DNA of 40,889 nt from the IMG/VR virus record IMGVR_UViG_3300048588_000154, positions 1-40,889 of that record. The stretch is one strand, 5' to 3'. A program made the position numbers and the translations under genes. Numbering within the stretch: the stretch's first letter is position 1; each line of letters starts with the position of its first letter. The DNA comes from a virus. Below the pieces are notes generated by a model. It had not been told where the DNA came from, did not search any database, and was given only the letters and a program-made list of their open reading frames with translations. Of the stretch, positions 14,180-19,965 are shown piece after piece.

Positions 14180-14584
14180 ATGCCGGATCTTTGGGCTCCT
14201 GAAGGGTACGCGGAGGCAAGAGGTTGTGAGTGTGGACGCCCAGGCTGGCATCGGGATCTTGTTCCCGACAGCCTTCTCGGACTCGACATCAAGCCCGCCT
14301 GCTGCATCCATGACTTCATGTATACCTATCCAAATGACGCCGGCCTTGACTACAAGGCAATCGCCGATCATGTGTTCCTCAACAACATGCTGCGCCTGAT
14401 CGAGGCGGGAACAAAACAAGGCTGGCTCAAGAAGTTGAGGTCAGCCCTGGCCTGGTTGTATTATCAAGGGGTCGTTGCTTTTGGCGGGCCATCATTCTGG
14501 GCAGGCAAAAATGATCCAGCAAACCTCATACATCCCGACCTCGTGCGAGCCAGGATATCCGATCGACTCGCCGATTCAGCATGA
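14180..14584 (+). CDS. Phospholipase A2-like protein, 134 aa
   Basis: Two PLA2 hallmarks occur in the right order. A cysteine-rich loop, GCECGRPG (residues 15-22), resembles the calcium loop (GCxCGxGG). CCIHDFMY (41-48) resembles the catalytic CCxxHDxCY, giving H44/D45. D63 (AD) could be the second catalytic acid. The C-terminal half (YYQGVVAFGGPSFWAGK) is a pattern I associate with small phage proteins of this type. It could hydrolyse host phospholipids during lysis or be exported to the envelope. The end overlaps the convergent SDR gene by 59 bases. Confidence 0.6.
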   Translation: MPDLWAPEGYAEARGCECGRPGWHRDLVPDSLLGLDIKPACCIHDFMYTYPNDAGLDYKAIADHVFLNNMLRLIEAGTKQGWLKKLRSALAWLYYQGVVAFGGPSFWAGKNDPANLIHPDLVRARISDRLADSA

Positions 14585-15131
14585 TCTGCATGATCTCGTT
14601 CGCCACAACATCAGCTTGCATCAGAGAGCCCTGATCCTCATCAGGGAAGAGGCCCCGCCGCATTTTGCTTGCCGTCCTGCCAATGTTCAAACACCACGCA
14701 TCGACCCCCTCTTGAATCATGCACTCGACGAACATCGACAGTCCGGCTTTCGATGCACAGTATGCGCTCCAGGTTGCCCTGGCCTTCCGAGCCGCCGATG
14801 ATCCGATCAGAATGATCCGGCACTTTGGATTGACCGACAGAGCTGCCTGCACGCAGTTGTAGGACCCAAGGAGATTGACATTGATCTGTCGATGCCATGC
14901 GCTGACCGATCCACCCGTCACAGGCTCGGGCGTGATGACCCCGGCGAACACGATCAACGTGTCGGGCCGCTGCATGGTGATCCTCGTCATCTGGCTTTGG
15001 TTCGTGACATCAAGCTCCCCGCTCGTAAATGCCTTTACCTTCGCCGCCTCCAGCCAGGGGCCCGATCTGATCCGCATGAGAAGCGCCTGCGCGATGTCTG
15101 AGCCCGCCCCGATCACGACTATCTTGTGCAT
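14526..15131 (-). CDS. SDR-family reductase, TarJ/Bcs1-C-like
   Basis: This is a short-chain dehydrogenase. GAGSDIA (8-14) is the nucleotide loop, FAGVI (62-66) replaces the usual NNAG, N86 lies in NVNLLGS, and SSAARKARATWSAYCASK gives S111/S112, Y124 and K128. The later segment GRTASKMRRGLFPDED resembles the RTATPMR region of the SDR half of bifunctional cytidylyltransferase/SDR enzymes (Bcs1/Acs1), which reduce ribulose 5-phosphate to ribitol 5-phosphate. The start lies inside the cytidylyltransferase gene, with GGAG 10 bases upstream. It is the last gene of the cassette. Family is firm; substrate is inferred from context. Confidence 0.85.
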   Translation of the reverse strand: MHKIVVIGAGSDIAQALLMRIRSGPWLEAAKVKAFTSGELDVTNQSQMTRITMQRPDTLIVFAGVITPEPVTGGSVSAWHRQINVNLLGSYNCVQAALSVNPKCRIILIGSSAARKARATWSAYCASKAGLSMFVECMIQEGVDAWCLNIGRTASKMRRGLFPDEDQGSLMQADVVANEIMQIMLNRRVDRISWLARGRDV

Positions 15132-15711
15132 TGAAAGCCATCTCCATGAGTTCCAGGTCGCCTGGATACGTCAGCTTAAGCCCAGTCCTCCAGCTCCCCG
15201 GAATGAGCCGGCAGTCCCATTGATTCAAGGTCGCCATCAAGGACCATTCATCGCCATCAGAAAGATGCCCGAAGCGATCCAGGACTTGACGAAGCAGCCC
15301 CGCATCAAATACCTGAGGGGTATGAATGATACTCATCAGATGACGAGGAATCGGCGTGAAGCTTCCCGATAGTTTGAGCACAGCGGAATTGATGGAAGGT
15401 GATCCGAAGGCCACGGCTGACCCCTCGGATCGAATGGCAAGATCGTAATCAGAGGTCGATGGTAAAAATCTTGCACCCTCGGCGATGATAACACGATCAG
15501 TTTTCACATGGGCGAGCCCCCGCAACACACTCTCCCGCCTTGTCTCACCGCCACATATATCCTTTCCCACAACCACCAATGAATCGACGAGAGGCCGAAG
15601 GCAACCCTCGACGATCTCCCACGGTCTCAGCCCATTGATGAAAACCTCCATCTTGTCAGCGCCAAACCTCGTTCCAGAGCCAGCCGCAAGGACAAGAGCG
15701 GTAATGCTCAT
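15010..15711 (-). CDS. IspD/TarI-like cytidylyltransferase
   Basis: Enzymes of this family join CTP to a sugar-alcohol phosphate. The family landmarks are present: LAAGSGTRFGADK (8-20, with R15 and K20), GGETRRESV (54-62), EGAR (78-81, in place of DAAR), HTPQVF (130-135), DGDEWS (152-157) and LKLTYPGDLELME (178-190). This fits an IspD/TarI fold, divergent at the acidic motif. ATG 15711 overlaps the preceding stop (ATGA), with GGGAGG 7 bases upstream. The last ~40 codons overlap the SDR gene in another frame and lie past the usual family end. The reductase and transferase neighbours suggest CDP-ribitol or CDP-glycerol rather than isoprenoid synthesis. Confidence 0.82.
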   Translation of the reverse strand: MSITALVLAAGSGTRFGADKMEVFINGLRPWEIVEGCLRPLVDSLVVVGKDICGGETRRESVLRGLAHVKTDRVIIAEGARFLPSTSDYDLAIRSEGSAVAFGSPSINSAVLKLSGSFTPIPRHLMSIIHTPQVFDAGLLRQVLDRFGHLSDGDEWSLMATLNQWDCRLIPGSWRTGLKLTYPGDLELMEMAFNAQDSRDRGGLRHRAGASHADQIGPLAGGGEGKGIYERGA

Positions 15712-15896
15712 CGCATGGCCTCCCAATCGCATCTGATCCGTTCATTGATCCGCTTGATCGGATCATCATCGAGCCTGATCGAAATATGCTCCAGACGCTT
15801 GTGCCATGCGTCGCTGAGCATTTTCAGATACCGCTTGGACTCCTCCAATGAATCGAGCAAGGCCAGAGCTGCATCACGATCATTCGGGCTTATCAT
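15708..15896 (-). CDS. Small helical protein, 62 aa
   Basis: ATGA overlaps join it to both the transferase (15893-15896) and the cytidylyltransferase (15708-15711). It is charged and almost all helix. No family is recognised; its fixed place in the cassette suggests an accessory subunit or regulator (inference). Confidence 0.65.
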   Translation of the reverse strand: MISPNDRDAALALLDSLEESKRYLKMLSDAWHKRLEHISIRLDDDPIKRINERIRCDWEAMR

Positions 15897-16873
15897 CGCA
15901 GAGCCTCCCGGATTGCCTGGACGATGTCTTTCCCATCCTTGATATAAAGATCAGGATACTGCCCAGGCTTGAAGTCAAGGATCGCATCATGGATCGCTCG
16001 ATCGACCCGCCTGTCCTCGCCGACATGGAACAGGCTGGGCTCAAGGTGTCTGTTGTCGCGGGCGTTGTGTCTCATGTTCCGATCCGGTCCGCCTCTCAGG
16101 ATCACGATCGGGCGATCAAGCAATGTGTATTCACAGACCACAGACGAGAAGTCAGAGACAAGGCAGCTCGATTGCTTCATCAGCTCATCATAGCGGAAGT
16201 AGCGGGGATCATCATGGGTGATAAGCTGGGCGCGTTCTGTATGGCGAAAGAGTTGATGGACACCTTGCATGAAAGCCTCATGGAGGTGATTGATCGGATG
16301 CAGCTTGACCATGACATCAAGGCCCGATGTGATCATCAGTCTTATGTTCTCTCTCAGAGCAAGAAGCCCCGCATCCCTGTGCGATGGCATATAAAGAACA
16401 GGACCTTTCTTGTTCCACTCGGGAAGGTTCTCATAGCATGACGCTCTGGTGAATGATGTTCGCTGCATCCTGTGAGCATACTCGGGGTATCTCGTTGTAT
16501 AAGGCTCCCAGAAGTGTTCGCCCTGGACCATTAGATGCTGCCAGCGTTCCGGCTTCCAGTTGCCGAGATCCGGCCCCTTGAATGAAACCCCATGGAAGAT
16601 CTGAATGGTATTGAGAGCGCGCCAATCCCCTGTCAGCTTCTGATAGCAAGAGATCACGTTAAGCATCTGGCGACGCCTGACCTCGTGCCACATATGCTCA
16701 TCCCTTTGAACACAGACAGCATCAATCCCCAGGATCTGCTTTGCGTAGATGGCTGTTTCCTTGACTGTCGTGATGATGATCGGCTGTATCTCGGGCATCC
16801 GTTCGATGATCGGCAGGAAGTGGGAGATGTACCCATGGTTGTTGACAAAGAACGCGACCGGCTTTCTGCTCAT
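15893..16873 (-). CDS. TagB/TagF-family polyol-phosphate transferase
   Basis: The family (CDP-glycerol:poly(glycerophosphate) glycerophosphotransferase and CDP-ribitol relatives) moves polyol phosphates from a CDP donor onto a glycan or polymer. Its motifs appear in order: FHGVSFKG (93-100), YMPSHRD (161-167), VKLHP (189-193), SDFSSVVCEY (240-249) and DRPIV (253-257). At 326 residues it holds the GT-B catalytic core without the N-terminal glycosyltransferase or membrane-anchoring parts of full-length TagF. Start and end are both ATGA overlaps. Its acceptor is unknown; lack of a membrane helix suggests a cytoplasmic acceptor or one reached peripherally. Confidence 0.85.
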   Translation of the reverse strand: MSRKPVAFFVNNHGYISHFLPIIERMPEIQPIIITTVKETAIYAKQILGIDAVCVQRDEHMWHEVRRRQMLNVISCYQKLTGDWRALNTIQIFHGVSFKGPDLGNWKPERWQHLMVQGEHFWEPYTTRYPEYAHRMQRTSFTRASCYENLPEWNKKGPVLYMPSHRDAGLLALRENIRLMITSGLDVMVKLHPINHLHEAFMQGVHQLFRHTERAQLITHDDPRYFRYDELMKQSSCLVSDFSSVVCEYTLLDRPIVILRGGPDRNMRHNARDNRHLEPSLFHVGEDRRVDRAIHDAILDFKPGQYPDLYIKDGKDIVQAIREALR

Positions 16874-17304
16874 ACGAATTCCCCCACAAGACTGATCATA
16901 ATTTCCCGCCCTCTCGGATCATCAAGCTCGAACGCGAGCAGACGCTGCCAGCGTCCGAGATGAAGCATGTTGTCAAGAACTGGTATCGTTTCAGAAGTAT
17001 TTACCAGAAGGCTCTTGATGTGGCTATGACCATTCACCGGCTCGTCGGGCGGGACATCCCGGCAATCAAGATCATCATGCGCATAGCGGGCTGAGCGGGG
17101 GGCGAACTCTTCGAGCTTTCGCATCGTGTCCGACATCAGCAAAGGCTCGAACTCATAGATCCGGACGCCCAATGTTGTATGCCTTGAATAGACATTGCAG
17201 AGCCCCGAGCGAAGATTCAGAGTCCTAACAGCAGCCTGGACCCTCTCTGTTATATCAATGACTCTCTTGCCCGGCTCGATTCGCATGATGGTGTGCTTGA
17301 ACAT
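16870..17304 (-). CDS. YjbQ/UPF0047-family protein
   Basis: The length (144 aa) and landmarks fit YjbQ: SRHTT (40-44), E51, HDD (76-78), NGHSH (91-95), LGRWQ (116-120) and DDPRGRE near 128-134. Bacterial YjbQ is a small, probably oligomeric enzyme annotated as secondary thiamine-phosphate synthase; its physiological role is poorly defined. GGGG lies 6 bases before the ATG. It is first in the cassette and overlaps the transferase start (ATGA). Presence in this coupled cassette suggests a phosphate-handling step on the polyol substrate, but that is inference. Confidence 0.85.
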   Translation of the reverse strand: MFKHTIMRIEPGKRVIDITERVQAAVRTLNLRSGLCNVYSRHTTLGVRIYEFEPLLMSDTMRKLEEFAPRSARYAHDDLDCRDVPPDEPVNGHSHIKSLLVNTSETIPVLDNMLHLGRWQRLLAFELDDPRGREIMISLVGEFV

Positions 17305-17316
17305 GATGATCCCCTA

Positions 17317-17353
17317 TAAAAAAACCACCGCCGAGCGGATGCCAAGCGGTGGT
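17317..17353 (-). terminator. Intrinsic terminator after the virion operon
   Basis: On the minus strand ACCACCGC (17353-17346) pairs with GCGGTGGT (17331-17324), followed by a T run (17323-17317). It lies between the last virion gene and YjbQ, ending only 12 bases before the YjbQ start codon. Confidence 0.85.
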
Positions 17354-17403
17354 CGAGAAGCGGAAAAAACCCCACCCAAAGGCAGGAGTTCCCTCATTAT
17401 ACC

Positions 17404-17754
17404 CTACCCCTGGCTTAGGCGCTGCCTCACGTCCAGGGTTTCGGGAAACTGGACTATATAGGTCTTGCTTGATCTCGTGATCTCGATCTCCCACGACAGG
17501 CGCTCGCCAGCCTGTAGATCATCGGTGTCGTCTGTGTCCATCGTGATCTCGATTTCCCCGCGAGAGGCATCGCCAACAACAGACACCTTGCTTGCTGCAA
17601 GCGTCAGCTCGACAAGCTCCTCGCCCGAGCCAAGAAAGATCGCCTTGATGGCGCTGGCGTTCTCAAGACTGAACGGCGCTCCGTTCGCGGTCTTGAGCAA
17701 TACCTTGATTGTTCGATCTGTGCCTTTGATGATCGAGAGAAGCTGACTCATCAT
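17404..17754 (-). CDS. Putative baseplate/fibre-associated protein, 116 aa
   Basis: This beta-rich protein has alternating hydrophobic strands (IKAIFLG; VELTLAASKVSVV; GEIEITMDTDDTDDLQAG; YIVQFPETLDV), the kind of Ig-like or BppU-N-like layout common in phage adhesion proteins. AGGAC lies 6 bases before the double-ATG start. It is the last gene of the virion operon. Exact role unknown. Confidence 0.6.
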   Translation of the reverse strand: MMSQLLSIIKGTDRTIKVLLKTANGAPFSLENASAIKAIFLGSGEELVELTLAASKVSVVGDASRGEIEITMDTDDTDDLQAGERLSWEIEITRSSKTYIVQFPETLDVRQRLSQG

Positions 17755-18141: not shown

Positions 18142-19965
18142 TTATGCAAACGCTTGCGCGATGGTTCCATAATGATTCGTTCCGTCGTAGACCAATTGCA
18201 CAACATCAACAGCGAATGCACCCGGCGATAACGTAGGGGCAACACCTCCAGGCCATTTCACTGAAGCAGGCCATGTAATTGCCCTGGGTGTGCTGTCCTG
18301 CGTGATCACGAGATGATAGATGTCTCCAGATTTTGAGTTGGCAAAAGTGAGAGTGCAATCGGCATTAAGGCCTATCGTGTGAACGCGGCCTTCAAGAAAA
18401 TCAACAACCTTCGAGCTTCCACTATTTCCGAGAGCATTTGTGCCAACGGCCACCCATTGCGTGGCTACCTCATAAATTCCTGACGTGAGAGTTGAGCCGG
18501 TGACTCTGAGAATTCTTTGAGCGCCGCCTGGGTTTCCGTTCGGCATCGTAATGCGATACTTTGTCGTCATGCCTGTGCCAGCACGAAGACCGAAAGCATT
18601 TGATTCATTCTGACGATTGGTTGTATGCCACCAGAAAGTATTCTCAGCAGCCGCTGTCGCTGAATCAACCCCCGCGCCCGATGGCAGGTTCAGATAATAG
18701 CCGAGCGACATGCTGCGCTTGGTGCCGCCGACCTTCCAGATATTGGCGCGTTCGTCTGCACTGAACAGAGAGAAGCCTGGGTATTTTCCAAGAGAGAGAG
18801 TTGCATCCTCAGGAGACTGAGTGTATTCCCCGAACGTGACAGCATAAAAATTGCTGCAGTTCATGAATCGGCCACCCAGCACAACCCCGAAGGTTGAAGC
18901 CGAGGAAGCATCAGAGGCATAGATCCCGCTGTTGGAGCCACTGGCTATATTATTGGTTCCGCCCAGAATGCTTGAATACGAACCACTAACCCTGTTCGTT
19001 AGACCACCACCGATGAAGGCGTTGTCAATTGAGTTGGTCATGCGATTGAAAACGCCGCCAACGATTGCGCAACCCTGTGCTCCAGAGGGTATGGGTTGGT
19101 TAACTCCATTCCATGCCATGTTCAAGTCAATGCACTTCTTGCCGATGTCTCTGGTGCCCGCTGCGTATCGCCCATCATCAAGATAGATCGCGCCGCCGCT
19201 GTAGCCAGTCGATCCTGCATTGGAAGGCTTGAACTTCAAAGCCCCGAGCATTCCATTGGAGCCGCTGAAAGTCTGAGATGAAAAAAGGAGATCGTTATCG
19301 GCCCAATCATAATCGCCATCGGTCCCGGAGTTTTTTCTTAGTACCTGATTTGTTGTACCTCCGGTCGGTCCTCCACCAGGGTCGCCTTGTGGTCCCTGTT
19401 CGCCTTGTGGTCCCTGTTCGCCTTGTGGACCCTGCGCTCCATCAGCGCCCTTGATGTTATAAAGTGGAGTATCTGGAAATCCAGCCCAGCCGTTATCAAT
19501 TGAGTATTGAAAGACATCGCCATTGGAGATGACGACGAAGATGTCACCATCAAGAGGAACGCTTACATCAGTAGTAGGATCTGTTCCGAAGTACCACTTC
19601 GCAGGGGAGATCCTGCCGATGCCTTCAAAGCCTGTGCCGGTATAGATCTGGAGAAAACCCACATCATCATAAATCACATCGCCAGGGACGAGATCGGTTG
19701 GCTCTGTGCCTGATTCATACCAGCGGCTGCCCTTGACATGGATCGTTGTGTCAACCCACTGTGAGCCATCGTACTGATAAAGCAGGCCATTGGTTTCCAG
19801 AATGAAAAGATCACCGGCCAATGCTCCTGTGACTGCCTCTGGATCTGCGCCTCTTTGAATGGTGCTGCCTCGCACACCTGCTTCGCCCGCTGCACCTGCA
19901 GGGCCTTGGGGGCCTTGTGGTCCAGGAGGCCCCTGATTTTCGCCGCCGATATTGATCAGACCCAT
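18142..19965 (-). CDS. Collagen-like tail fibre with YadA-like repeats, 607 aa
   Basis: This is a probable receptor-binding fibre. Collagen-type GPQ repeats occur at residues 12-30 and 175-197. Between them are three similar modules of the form GDLF...[11 protein letters not shown] (about 51-165). Residues 300-370 contain GGxxNxxSG-type repeats ([28 protein letters not shown]), as in the YadA head, which trimerise. A C-terminal beta-rich domain (about 500-607) probably binds the receptor or closes the trimer. AGGAG precedes the ATG. It is next to the lysis genes. Confidence 0.85.
19381..19437. repeat. 18-bp tandem repeat in fibre collagen region
   Basis: About two and a half copies of TGTGGTCCCTGTTCGCCT encode the GPQGEQ triplets of the fibre. 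Nearly identical copies can gain or lose units by recombination, changing fibre length. Confidence 0.8.

What the first reader, a model, noticed from the sequence alone, without database searches (positions are those of the whole stretch)
14526..17304. Phage-borne CDP-polyol synthesis and transfer cassette
Five genes linked by ATGA or longer overlaps encode a YjbQ-family protein, a TagB/TagF-type transferase, a 62-aa protein, an IspD/TarI-like cytidylyltransferase and an SDR reductase. Seen in sequence: the family motifs and the coupling. Known: bacterial Bcs1/Acs1 or TarI/TarJ pairs make CDP-ribitol, and TagF-type enzymes transfer polyol phosphate. Inferred: the phage makes and attaches a polyol phosphate, possibly to the host surface (receptor masking), to its own fibres, or to another acceptor. 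I do not know of this exact set in phages.
Basis: partly seen in the sequence, partly recalled or inferred. Interest (0 to 1): 0.85.

Follow-up and report, generated by a model that had tools for sequence, protein, structure and literature searches.

The report
Phage-borne CDP-polyol synthesis/transfer gene cassette
A rare group of bacterial viruses carries its own compact gene set that looks able to make an activated sugar alcohol (CDP-polyol, perhaps CDP-ribitol) and attach its phosphate to something late in infection, a chemistry known mainly from bacterial capsules and cell walls; what it is attached to is not known.

Summary
Five minus-strand ORFs (17304-14526), joined by three ATGA overlaps and one 122-nt overlap, encode a UPF0047/YjbQ protein, a TagB/TagF-type transferase (PF04464), a 62-aa protein, an IspD-superfamily cytidylyltransferase and an SDR. 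Family scores, catalytic motifs and purifying selection support real enzymes. The order YjbQ-TagF-IspD-SDR persists in a relative only 42-64% identical in protein, which lacks the 62-aa gene. All relatives found are four IMG/VR contigs; the TagF-like protein has no match in 50,697 phage records or 72,556 plasmids.

IspD and SDR match, end to end, the two halves of one fused protein in Yersinia phage YerA41, the architecture of Haemophilus Bcs1 (CDP-ribitol synthase). CDP-polyol synthesis plus polyol-phosphate transfer is therefore the best reading. The polyol is unproven and the acceptor unknown. With one transferase and no other glycosyltransferase, a pre-existing host envelope glycan is most likely, then a virion part, then DNA: YerA41 and SP-15 carry their homologues in DNA-hypermodification clusters, and a sibling phage has a 7-deazaguanine DNA set.

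New here: a conserved GGGTATAAT element and terminator-like hairpins before the cassette, and a second viral context pairing YjbQ with a cytidylyltransferase and SDR.

The parts
16870..17304 (-). YjbQ/UPF0047-family protein, 144 aa, first gene of the cassette
   Evidence: PF01894 2.3e-30; TIGR00149 above cut-off; PDB UPF0047 structures, e.g. 1ve0 8.5e-22; family His/Asp/Glu residues invariant in five viral copies
15893..16873 (-). TagB/TagF-type polyol-phosphate transferase, 326 aa, GT-B-like
   Evidence: PF04464 1.1e-10 over cut-off; motifs IQIFHG (H94), KLHP (H192), SDFSSVVCEYTLLDRPI align with Listeria TagB/TarL-type enzymes (hhalign E 3.4e-7); low-confidence AF2 model still finds Bcs3, TagF and other GT-B folds
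15708..15896 (-). 62-aa protein, no family; under purifying selection (dN/dS 0.05) but absent from L008
15010..15732 (-). IspD-superfamily cytidylyltransferase (likely start 15711); last ~35 codons overlap the SDR gene
   Evidence: PF01128 5.2e-11 over cut-off; PDB IspD 5ddt 1.4e-11; hhalign to YerA41 gp151 N-half E 4.9e-12; HDxARP replaced by AEGARF
14526..15131 (-). Short-chain dehydrogenase/reductase, 201 aa
   Evidence: PF00106 2.9e-17; catalytic S/Y/K invariant; hhalign to YerA41 gp151 C-half E 1.4e-15 with shared NxGRxxSKxRxxxFxxED motif
17391..17404 (-). GGGTATAATGAGGG, -10-like element at the stop of the upstream tail gene; GGGTATAAT kept in L002, L003 and L008; GGTATAAT occurs once in the window
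17318..17395 (-). Two hairpins followed by T runs (stems 17395-17363 and 17353-17324), terminator-like, just upstream of the YjbQ start
   Evidence: fold z-score -3.6; terminator scan; paired hairpins also predicted in L003 and L008
17404..17754 (-). 116-aa late-gene protein (phrog_1084, unknown function), last gene before the cassette
18142..19965 (-). Collagen-repeat tail-fibre-like protein, 607 aa, upstream context
   Evidence: PHROG tail fibre matches

Best explanation
The cassette is a phage-owned CDP-polyol pathway. The SDR reduces a host keto-sugar phosphate (most likely ribulose 5-phosphate) with NADPH to a polyol phosphate, and the IspD-like enzyme couples it to CTP, giving a CDP-polyol (CDP-ribitol or a close tetritol/pentitol analogue; the two steps may occur in either order). 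The TagB/TagF-type enzyme transfers the polyol phosphate as a phosphodiester to a hydroxyl of an acceptor. YjbQ acts in the same pathway in a step not yet defined, perhaps on a phosphorylated intermediate. Because the cassette has a single transferase and no other glycosyltransferase, the acceptor is most likely a glycan or glycolipid already made by the host envelope, so that late in infection the phage alters the host surface (receptor masking, exclusion of other phages, or keeping progeny off cell debris). Shown: genes, families, motifs, order, selection. Inferred: reactions, polyol, acceptor, purpose.
For: Family and motif evidence for all four enzymes. Four-gene order kept in L008 at 42-64% protein identity. 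IspD and SDR each match, end to end, one half of YerA41 gp151, an IspD-SDR fusion, the same architecture as H. influenzae Bcs1, a characterised CDP-ribitol synthase (PMC10299916; bifunctional, reduction before cytidylyl transfer per Zolli 2001, cited in PMC10918830). PF04464 transferases CpsA and TagB add a polyol phosphate to a glycolipid acceptor (PMC11666461). The TagF-like domain CroT uses CDP-ribitol in Bcs3, and Bcs3 is among the best fold matches of a low-confidence model. YjbQ sits beside a cytidylyltransferase and SDR in a second, different viral glyco-cassette (L031/L032). GC of the cassette equals that of the phage (0.542 vs 0.537), consistent with long residence.
Against: No product or acceptor is shown. 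TarI similarity is weak and the SDR resembles EntA-type SDRs as much as any. The conserved IspD Asp of HDxARP is Glu here (also in YerA41). The nearest phage relatives of the parts lie in DNA-hypermodification clusters. No host is known, so no acceptor can be checked.
Confidence: 0.45

Rival explanations
1. The polyol phosphate is put on the phage's own particle, for example the collagen-like tail fibre or its neighbours, changing adsorption or stability.
For: The cassette directly follows the tail-fibre module; sibling L003 has an extra protein that looks by eye like a glycosyltransferase inside that module (L003:6608-7186; no family match).
Against: No enzyme that would start a chain on protein; TagF-type enzymes are not known to modify protein (own knowledge); the fibre's outer part is different in L003 while the cassette stays about 82% identical in DNA, so the cassette is not tied to one fibre; terminator-like hairpins separate it from the tail genes.
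Confidence: 0.2
2. The cassette hypermodifies phage DNA: a polyol phosphate is added to a modified base, as a late protection step comparable in timing and gene position to mom of phage Mu.
For: YerA41 gp151 (IspD-SDR) lies in a cluster proposed to make sugar-modified nucleotides, and its thymidine carries a ~1 kDa substitution; SP-15 gene 151 (PF04464 type) is assigned to its thymine hypermodification; sibling phage G001 has QueC and QueD, QueE- and FolE-like ORFs (read by eye), a DpdA homologue and a ParB-like gene for 7-deazaguanine DNA.
Against: No thymidylate-synthase or Thy1 homologue was found in window or siblings, though YerA41, the intended positive control, also gave none, so this is weak. 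The G001 set should end at preQ0, which lacks a nucleophile for transfer (inference). These phages were recovered from ordinary metagenomes, unlike YerA41 DNA that blocks polymerases. The cassette lies with tail genes, not with dpdA.
Confidence: 0.17
3. The pathway makes a CDP-activated metabolite for another use (isoprenoid-like CDP-methylerythritol, a cofactor, or a soluble nucleotide that interferes with host CTP or envelope synthesis), and the transferase is a GT-B glycosyltransferase or epimerase-like enzyme rather than a polyol-phosphate transferase.
For: IspD matches exceed TarI matches; the TagF-like protein also matches UDP-GlcNAc 2-epimerase weakly (Pfam 0.0014, below cut-off; fold search).
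Against: IspD equivalog score far below cut-off; PF04464 cut-off and both TagF histidine motifs are met.
Confidence: 0.15

Closest known systems
Yersinia phages YerA41 and vB_Yru_GN1, gp151 (IspD-SDR fusion)
   Same: Same two domains in the same order; full-length similarity of both halves (hhalign E 4.9e-12 and 1.4e-15); Glu replaces the IspD Asp in both; shared SDR C-terminal motif
   Different: Fused in one 455-aa protein; neighbours are annotated KpsC-like glycosyltransferases, a deacetylase/esterase-like protein and a GDPD; no PF04464 gene in the genome; large phage with hypermodified thymidine
Haemophilus influenzae Bcs1/Acs1 CDP-ribitol synthase and Bcs3 (CroT)
   Same: IspD-type plus SDR-type activities for the donor; TagF-like transferase for transfer (PMC10299916)
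   Different: Bcs1 is one bifunctional protein, Bcs3 a multi-enzyme polymerase with ribose-phosphate transferase and phosphatase; capsule export genes present.
Gram-positive TarI/TarJ with TagB/TagF/TarL
   Same: IspD-superfamily cytidylyltransferase next to PF04464 transferases; transferase motifs align
   Different: TarJ is annotated ribitol-5-phosphate dehydrogenase and is not an SDR (own knowledge); TarI keeps HDAVRP; belongs to a bacterial wall cluster (L039)
Campylobacter jejuni HS5.18/HS5.17 CDP-6-D-glucitol pair
   Same: PF01128 cytidylyltransferase plus SDR-superfamily reductase making a CDP-polyol (PMC10918830)
   Different: HS5.17 is PF01370-type, here PF00106-type; cytidylyl transfer comes first
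Bacillus phage SP-15 gene 151
   Same: PF04464-type gene in a phage, weak similarity to the window group (BLAST 7e-5 to L008; hhalign E 0.002)
   Different: Lies among UDP-sugar genes for a thymine modification; the IQxFHG motif was not aligned in it; no IspD or YjbQ gene beside it

Membership tests
PF04464 CDP-glycerol glycerophosphotransferase family (TagB/TagF/TarL) | Curated family score | tested here: met
   41.5 vs 22.1 bits; also over cut-off in all four relatives
PF04464 CDP-glycerol glycerophosphotransferase family (TagB/TagF/TarL) | Two conserved histidines (QxWHG-type and KLHP) | tested here: met
   H94 and H192 align with Listeria enzymes and are invariant in the three phage lineages
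PF04464 CDP-glycerol glycerophosphotransferase family (TagB/TagF/TarL) | Transfer of polyol phosphate from a CDP-polyol | not testable with these tools
   needs assay
IspD (MEP cytidylyltransferase) equivalog | TIGR00453 / NF001186 equivalog cut-offs | tested here: not met
   64.4 vs 181.3 and 51.2 vs 253 bits
IspD superfamily PF01128 | Curated family score and CTP-site motifs | tested here: met
   43.2 vs 27 bits; AAGxGxRxG...K, TPQxF, KLT kept; HDxARP changed to AEGARF
Bcs1/Acs1 CDP-ribitol synthase | IspD and SDR domains in one polypeptide | tested here: not met
   two overlapping ORFs in different frames in all copies
Bcs1/Acs1 CDP-ribitol synthase | IspD followed by SDR, overlapping genes | tested here: met
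   same order and overlap in window, L003 and L008
Bcs1/Acs1 CDP-ribitol synthase | CDP-ribitol product | not testable with these tools
   needs assay
UPF0047/YjbQ | PF01894 and TIGR00149 cut-offs, conserved His/Asp/Glu | tested here: met
Classical SDR | Family score and Ser...Tyr-xxx-Lys | tested here: met
   63.2 vs 26.6 bits; S111/S112, Y124, K128 invariant; cofactor loop is GAGSDIA rather than the usual GxxxGIG
Phage thymidine-hypermodification cluster | Hydroxymethyl-dUMP synthase (thymidylate-synthase or Thy1 homologue) | tested here: inconclusive
   none found, but YerA41 also gave none and the contigs may be incomplete

The most novel reading that the evidence does not exclude
The cassette puts a teichoic-acid-like polyol phosphate on phage DNA. 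YerA41 (IspD-SDR), SP-15 (PF04464 type) and this group would then be variants of one unrecognised kind of DNA armour, and YjbQ/UPF0047 would have a first defined role in CDP/CMP-sugar chemistry.
Probability: 0.12. Interest if true: 0.9.

Novelty: new variant of a known kind. Interest (0 to 1): 0.6.

Why it matters
Phages are known to glycosylate DNA, virions or host surface, but a self-contained CDP-polyol pathway with its own polyol-phosphate transferase has not been described in a phage as far as the searches here show. It gives a small, testable four-enzyme set, a possible way for a phage to build capsule- or teichoic-like phosphodiesters, and a genomic link between the widespread but functionally undefined YjbQ/UPF0047 family and cytidylyltransferase plus reductase pathways.

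Tried and rejected
Chimera or bacterial contamination: rejected, the cassette is embedded between phage tail and early genes in several contigs with matching GC. True IspD for isoprenoids: rejected as an equivalog. Chance ORFs: rejected (E-values, dN/dS). Structure prediction: AF2 models from three-sequence alignments were poor (mean pLDDT 57 and 43), so the fold matches are only supportive. Pattern scans of GTDB genomes for the TagF and SDR proteins found no relative. Plasmid searches gave only generic SDRs and IspD. A Bcs1 sequence could not be reached in the collections, so the YerA41 fusion served as proxy. Rfam found nothing in the region. Literature search found no phage with CDP-ribitol synthesis.
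Full report
What is there. Five minus-strand ORFs run from 17304 to 14526 as described. Three junctions are ATGA overlaps; the IspD/SDR junction is a 122-nt overlap in another frame. Pfam scores pass curated cut-offs for UPF0047, Glyphos_transf, IspD and adh_short. The 62-aa protein has no family.

Context. The window is a virus record of 40,889 bases, classed from IMG/VR. The minus strand carries a contractile-tail phage's late genes with Mu-like head proteins: terminase (cut by the window end), portal, protease, major head protein, sheath, tape measure, baseplate, fibres. The cassette follows a collagen-repeat fibre (19965-18142) and two small proteins, and ends facing a convergent region with Gp157-like and RecT proteins. 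Its GC (0.542) equals that of the phage.

Relatives. Scans of 2.9 million viral contigs found only four contigs with the cassette: one 99.9% identical (L004), one 95% (L002), one 82% in DNA (L003), one 42-64% in protein (L008). All keep YjbQ, TagF-like, IspD-like, SDR in order; L008 lacks the 62-aa gene. The TagF-like protein had no match in 50,697 phage records or 72,556 plasmids, and the GTDB pattern scans gave nothing. The pattern scans find mainly close relatives, so distant ones may be missed. The contig names have neighbouring IMG numbers, so the group may come from few sites. Against L003 all five genes show dN/dS well below 1.

The enzymes. The TagF-like protein aligns with two Listeria teichoic-acid transferases: IQ(I/L)(F/W)H, P(S/T)(H/F)RD, KLHP and (S/T)D(F/Y)SS...RPI coincide, so the two histidines critical for TagF-like enzymes (Schertzer 2005, cited in PMC11666461) have counterparts in H94 and H192; which published residue each matches was not tested. 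Its size resembles the single-addition enzymes TagB and CpsA more than the two-domain polymerase TagF. The IspD-like protein keeps the nucleotide-loop Arg and Lys, TPQxF and KLT, but HDxARP is AEGARF in all three lineages; YerA41 has VESARP, while TarI and E. coli IspD keep Asp. The SDR keeps Ser, Tyr and Lys. YjbQ keeps its family residues.

The key comparison. A protein search for the SDR in phages returned Yersinia phages YerA41 and GN1. The hit is the second half of a 455-aa protein whose first half is IspD-like. Each half aligns with the window protein along its length (E 4.9e-12 and 1.4e-15), including a C-terminal NxGRxxSKxRxxxFxxED motif that another viral SDR (L031) lacks. One protein with both activities is the design of H. 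influenzae CDP-ribitol synthase Bcs1 (PMC10299916; papers cited in PMC10918830). So the window pair is best seen as a split relative of that fusion. Another CDP-polyol route with IspD plus an SDR-superfamily reductase exists for glucitol (PMC10918830), so the polyol cannot be read from sequence.

YjbQ. Two further viral contigs (L031, L032; their YjbQ proteins 82% alike) have YjbQ followed by a CTP_transf_3 cytidylyltransferase (with a methyltransferase gene between in L032), an HMGL-like aldolase and an SDR in a long glyco-cassette. This is a second, different cytidylyltransferase family next to YjbQ, which suggests that YjbQ serves CDP/CMP-sugar pathways. Its reaction is unknown; the family shows low thiamin phosphate synthase activity (Morett 2008, cited in PMC4731195) and E. 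coli yjbQ rescues a pdxB mutant when overproduced (PMC7954711).

Control region. Between the last tail gene and YjbQ lies TAGGGTATAAT, kept in all lineages including L008; GGTATAAT occurs once in the window, and the 36 kb of sibling G001 upstream of its cassette have no second GGGTATAAT (L036 and L037 give no match). Two hairpins with T runs follow, the second ending 13 nt before the YjbQ start codon (z -3.6). The cassette thus looks insulated from the tail genes, as a moron would be; whether this is a promoter with attenuator, a short RNA or a terminator pair is open. No good -35 was found.

Acceptor. DNA: YerA41 (thymidine with ~1 kDa substitution, PMC9023294) and SP-15 (PMC5977210) carry homologues of different parts in clusters assigned to DNA hypermodification, and sibling phage G001 carries QueC and QueD and, by reading the ORFs, QueE and FolE, with a DpdA homologue and a ParB-like protein. 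But that set should stop at preQ0, with no obvious nucleophile, and thymidylate-synthase-type genes were not seen (YerA41 as control also failed). A late position does not exclude DNA: mom of phage Mu is also late and follows the tail genes (own knowledge). Virion: position is suggestive, but the outer fibre is replaced in L003 with the cassette kept. Envelope: TagB/CpsA-type enzymes act on pre-existing glycolipids, and one transferase suffices. I rank envelope, virion, DNA in that order; none is shown.

Verdict. Observation confirmed; CDP-polyol synthesis and transfer is likely (about 0.6 for that much), CDP-ribitol possible (about 0.35), acceptor open. The 0.45 given to the best explanation covers the pathway with an envelope acceptor as the leading guess; everything beyond the enzymes is inference.

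Noticed in passing
window 17318-17404 (-): Conserved GGGTATAAT at the tail gene's stop codon plus two terminator-like hairpins before YjbQ; kept in a divergent relative. Possible promoter/attenuator or short RNA.
   Followed up: partly
L036:15040-17999 and L037:230-814 (sibling phage G001): ParB-like, DpdA-like, QueC, QueD, QueE and FolE genes upstream of the terminase: a 7-deazaguanine DNA-modification set. The window is cut off before this region.
   Followed up: partly
L031:5980-9181 and L032:5992-9890: YjbQ beside a CTP_transf_3 cytidylyltransferase, HMGL-like aldolase, SDR and a small unassigned protein in two viral glyco-cassettes, suggesting a link of UPF0047 with CMP/CDP-sugar pathways.
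   Followed up: partly
YerA41 (L021), data in PMC9023294: The reported 184 mass step and 104 spacer on thymidine equal the residue masses of a tetritol phosphate (184.01) and a tetritol (104.05), which would fit an IspD-SDR product; the reported totals miss the simple structure by about 19 Da, so this is speculation on nominal masses.
   Followed up: partly
L003:6608-7186: 192-aa protein with a DVDW stretch that looks like a glycosyltransferase, in the tail module of the sibling phage; no Pfam or PHROG match.
   Followed up: partly
window 14180-14584 (+): Small convergent protein with weak prokaryotic phospholipase A2 similarity (PF09056 E=0.0012, below cut-off).
   Followed up: no
window 15010-15131 (-): IspD and SDR frames overlap by 122 nt in the +1 frame in the window (134 nt in L003) but about 20 nt in L008; a frameshift product joining the two, as in the YerA41 fusion, was not tested.
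   Followed up: no
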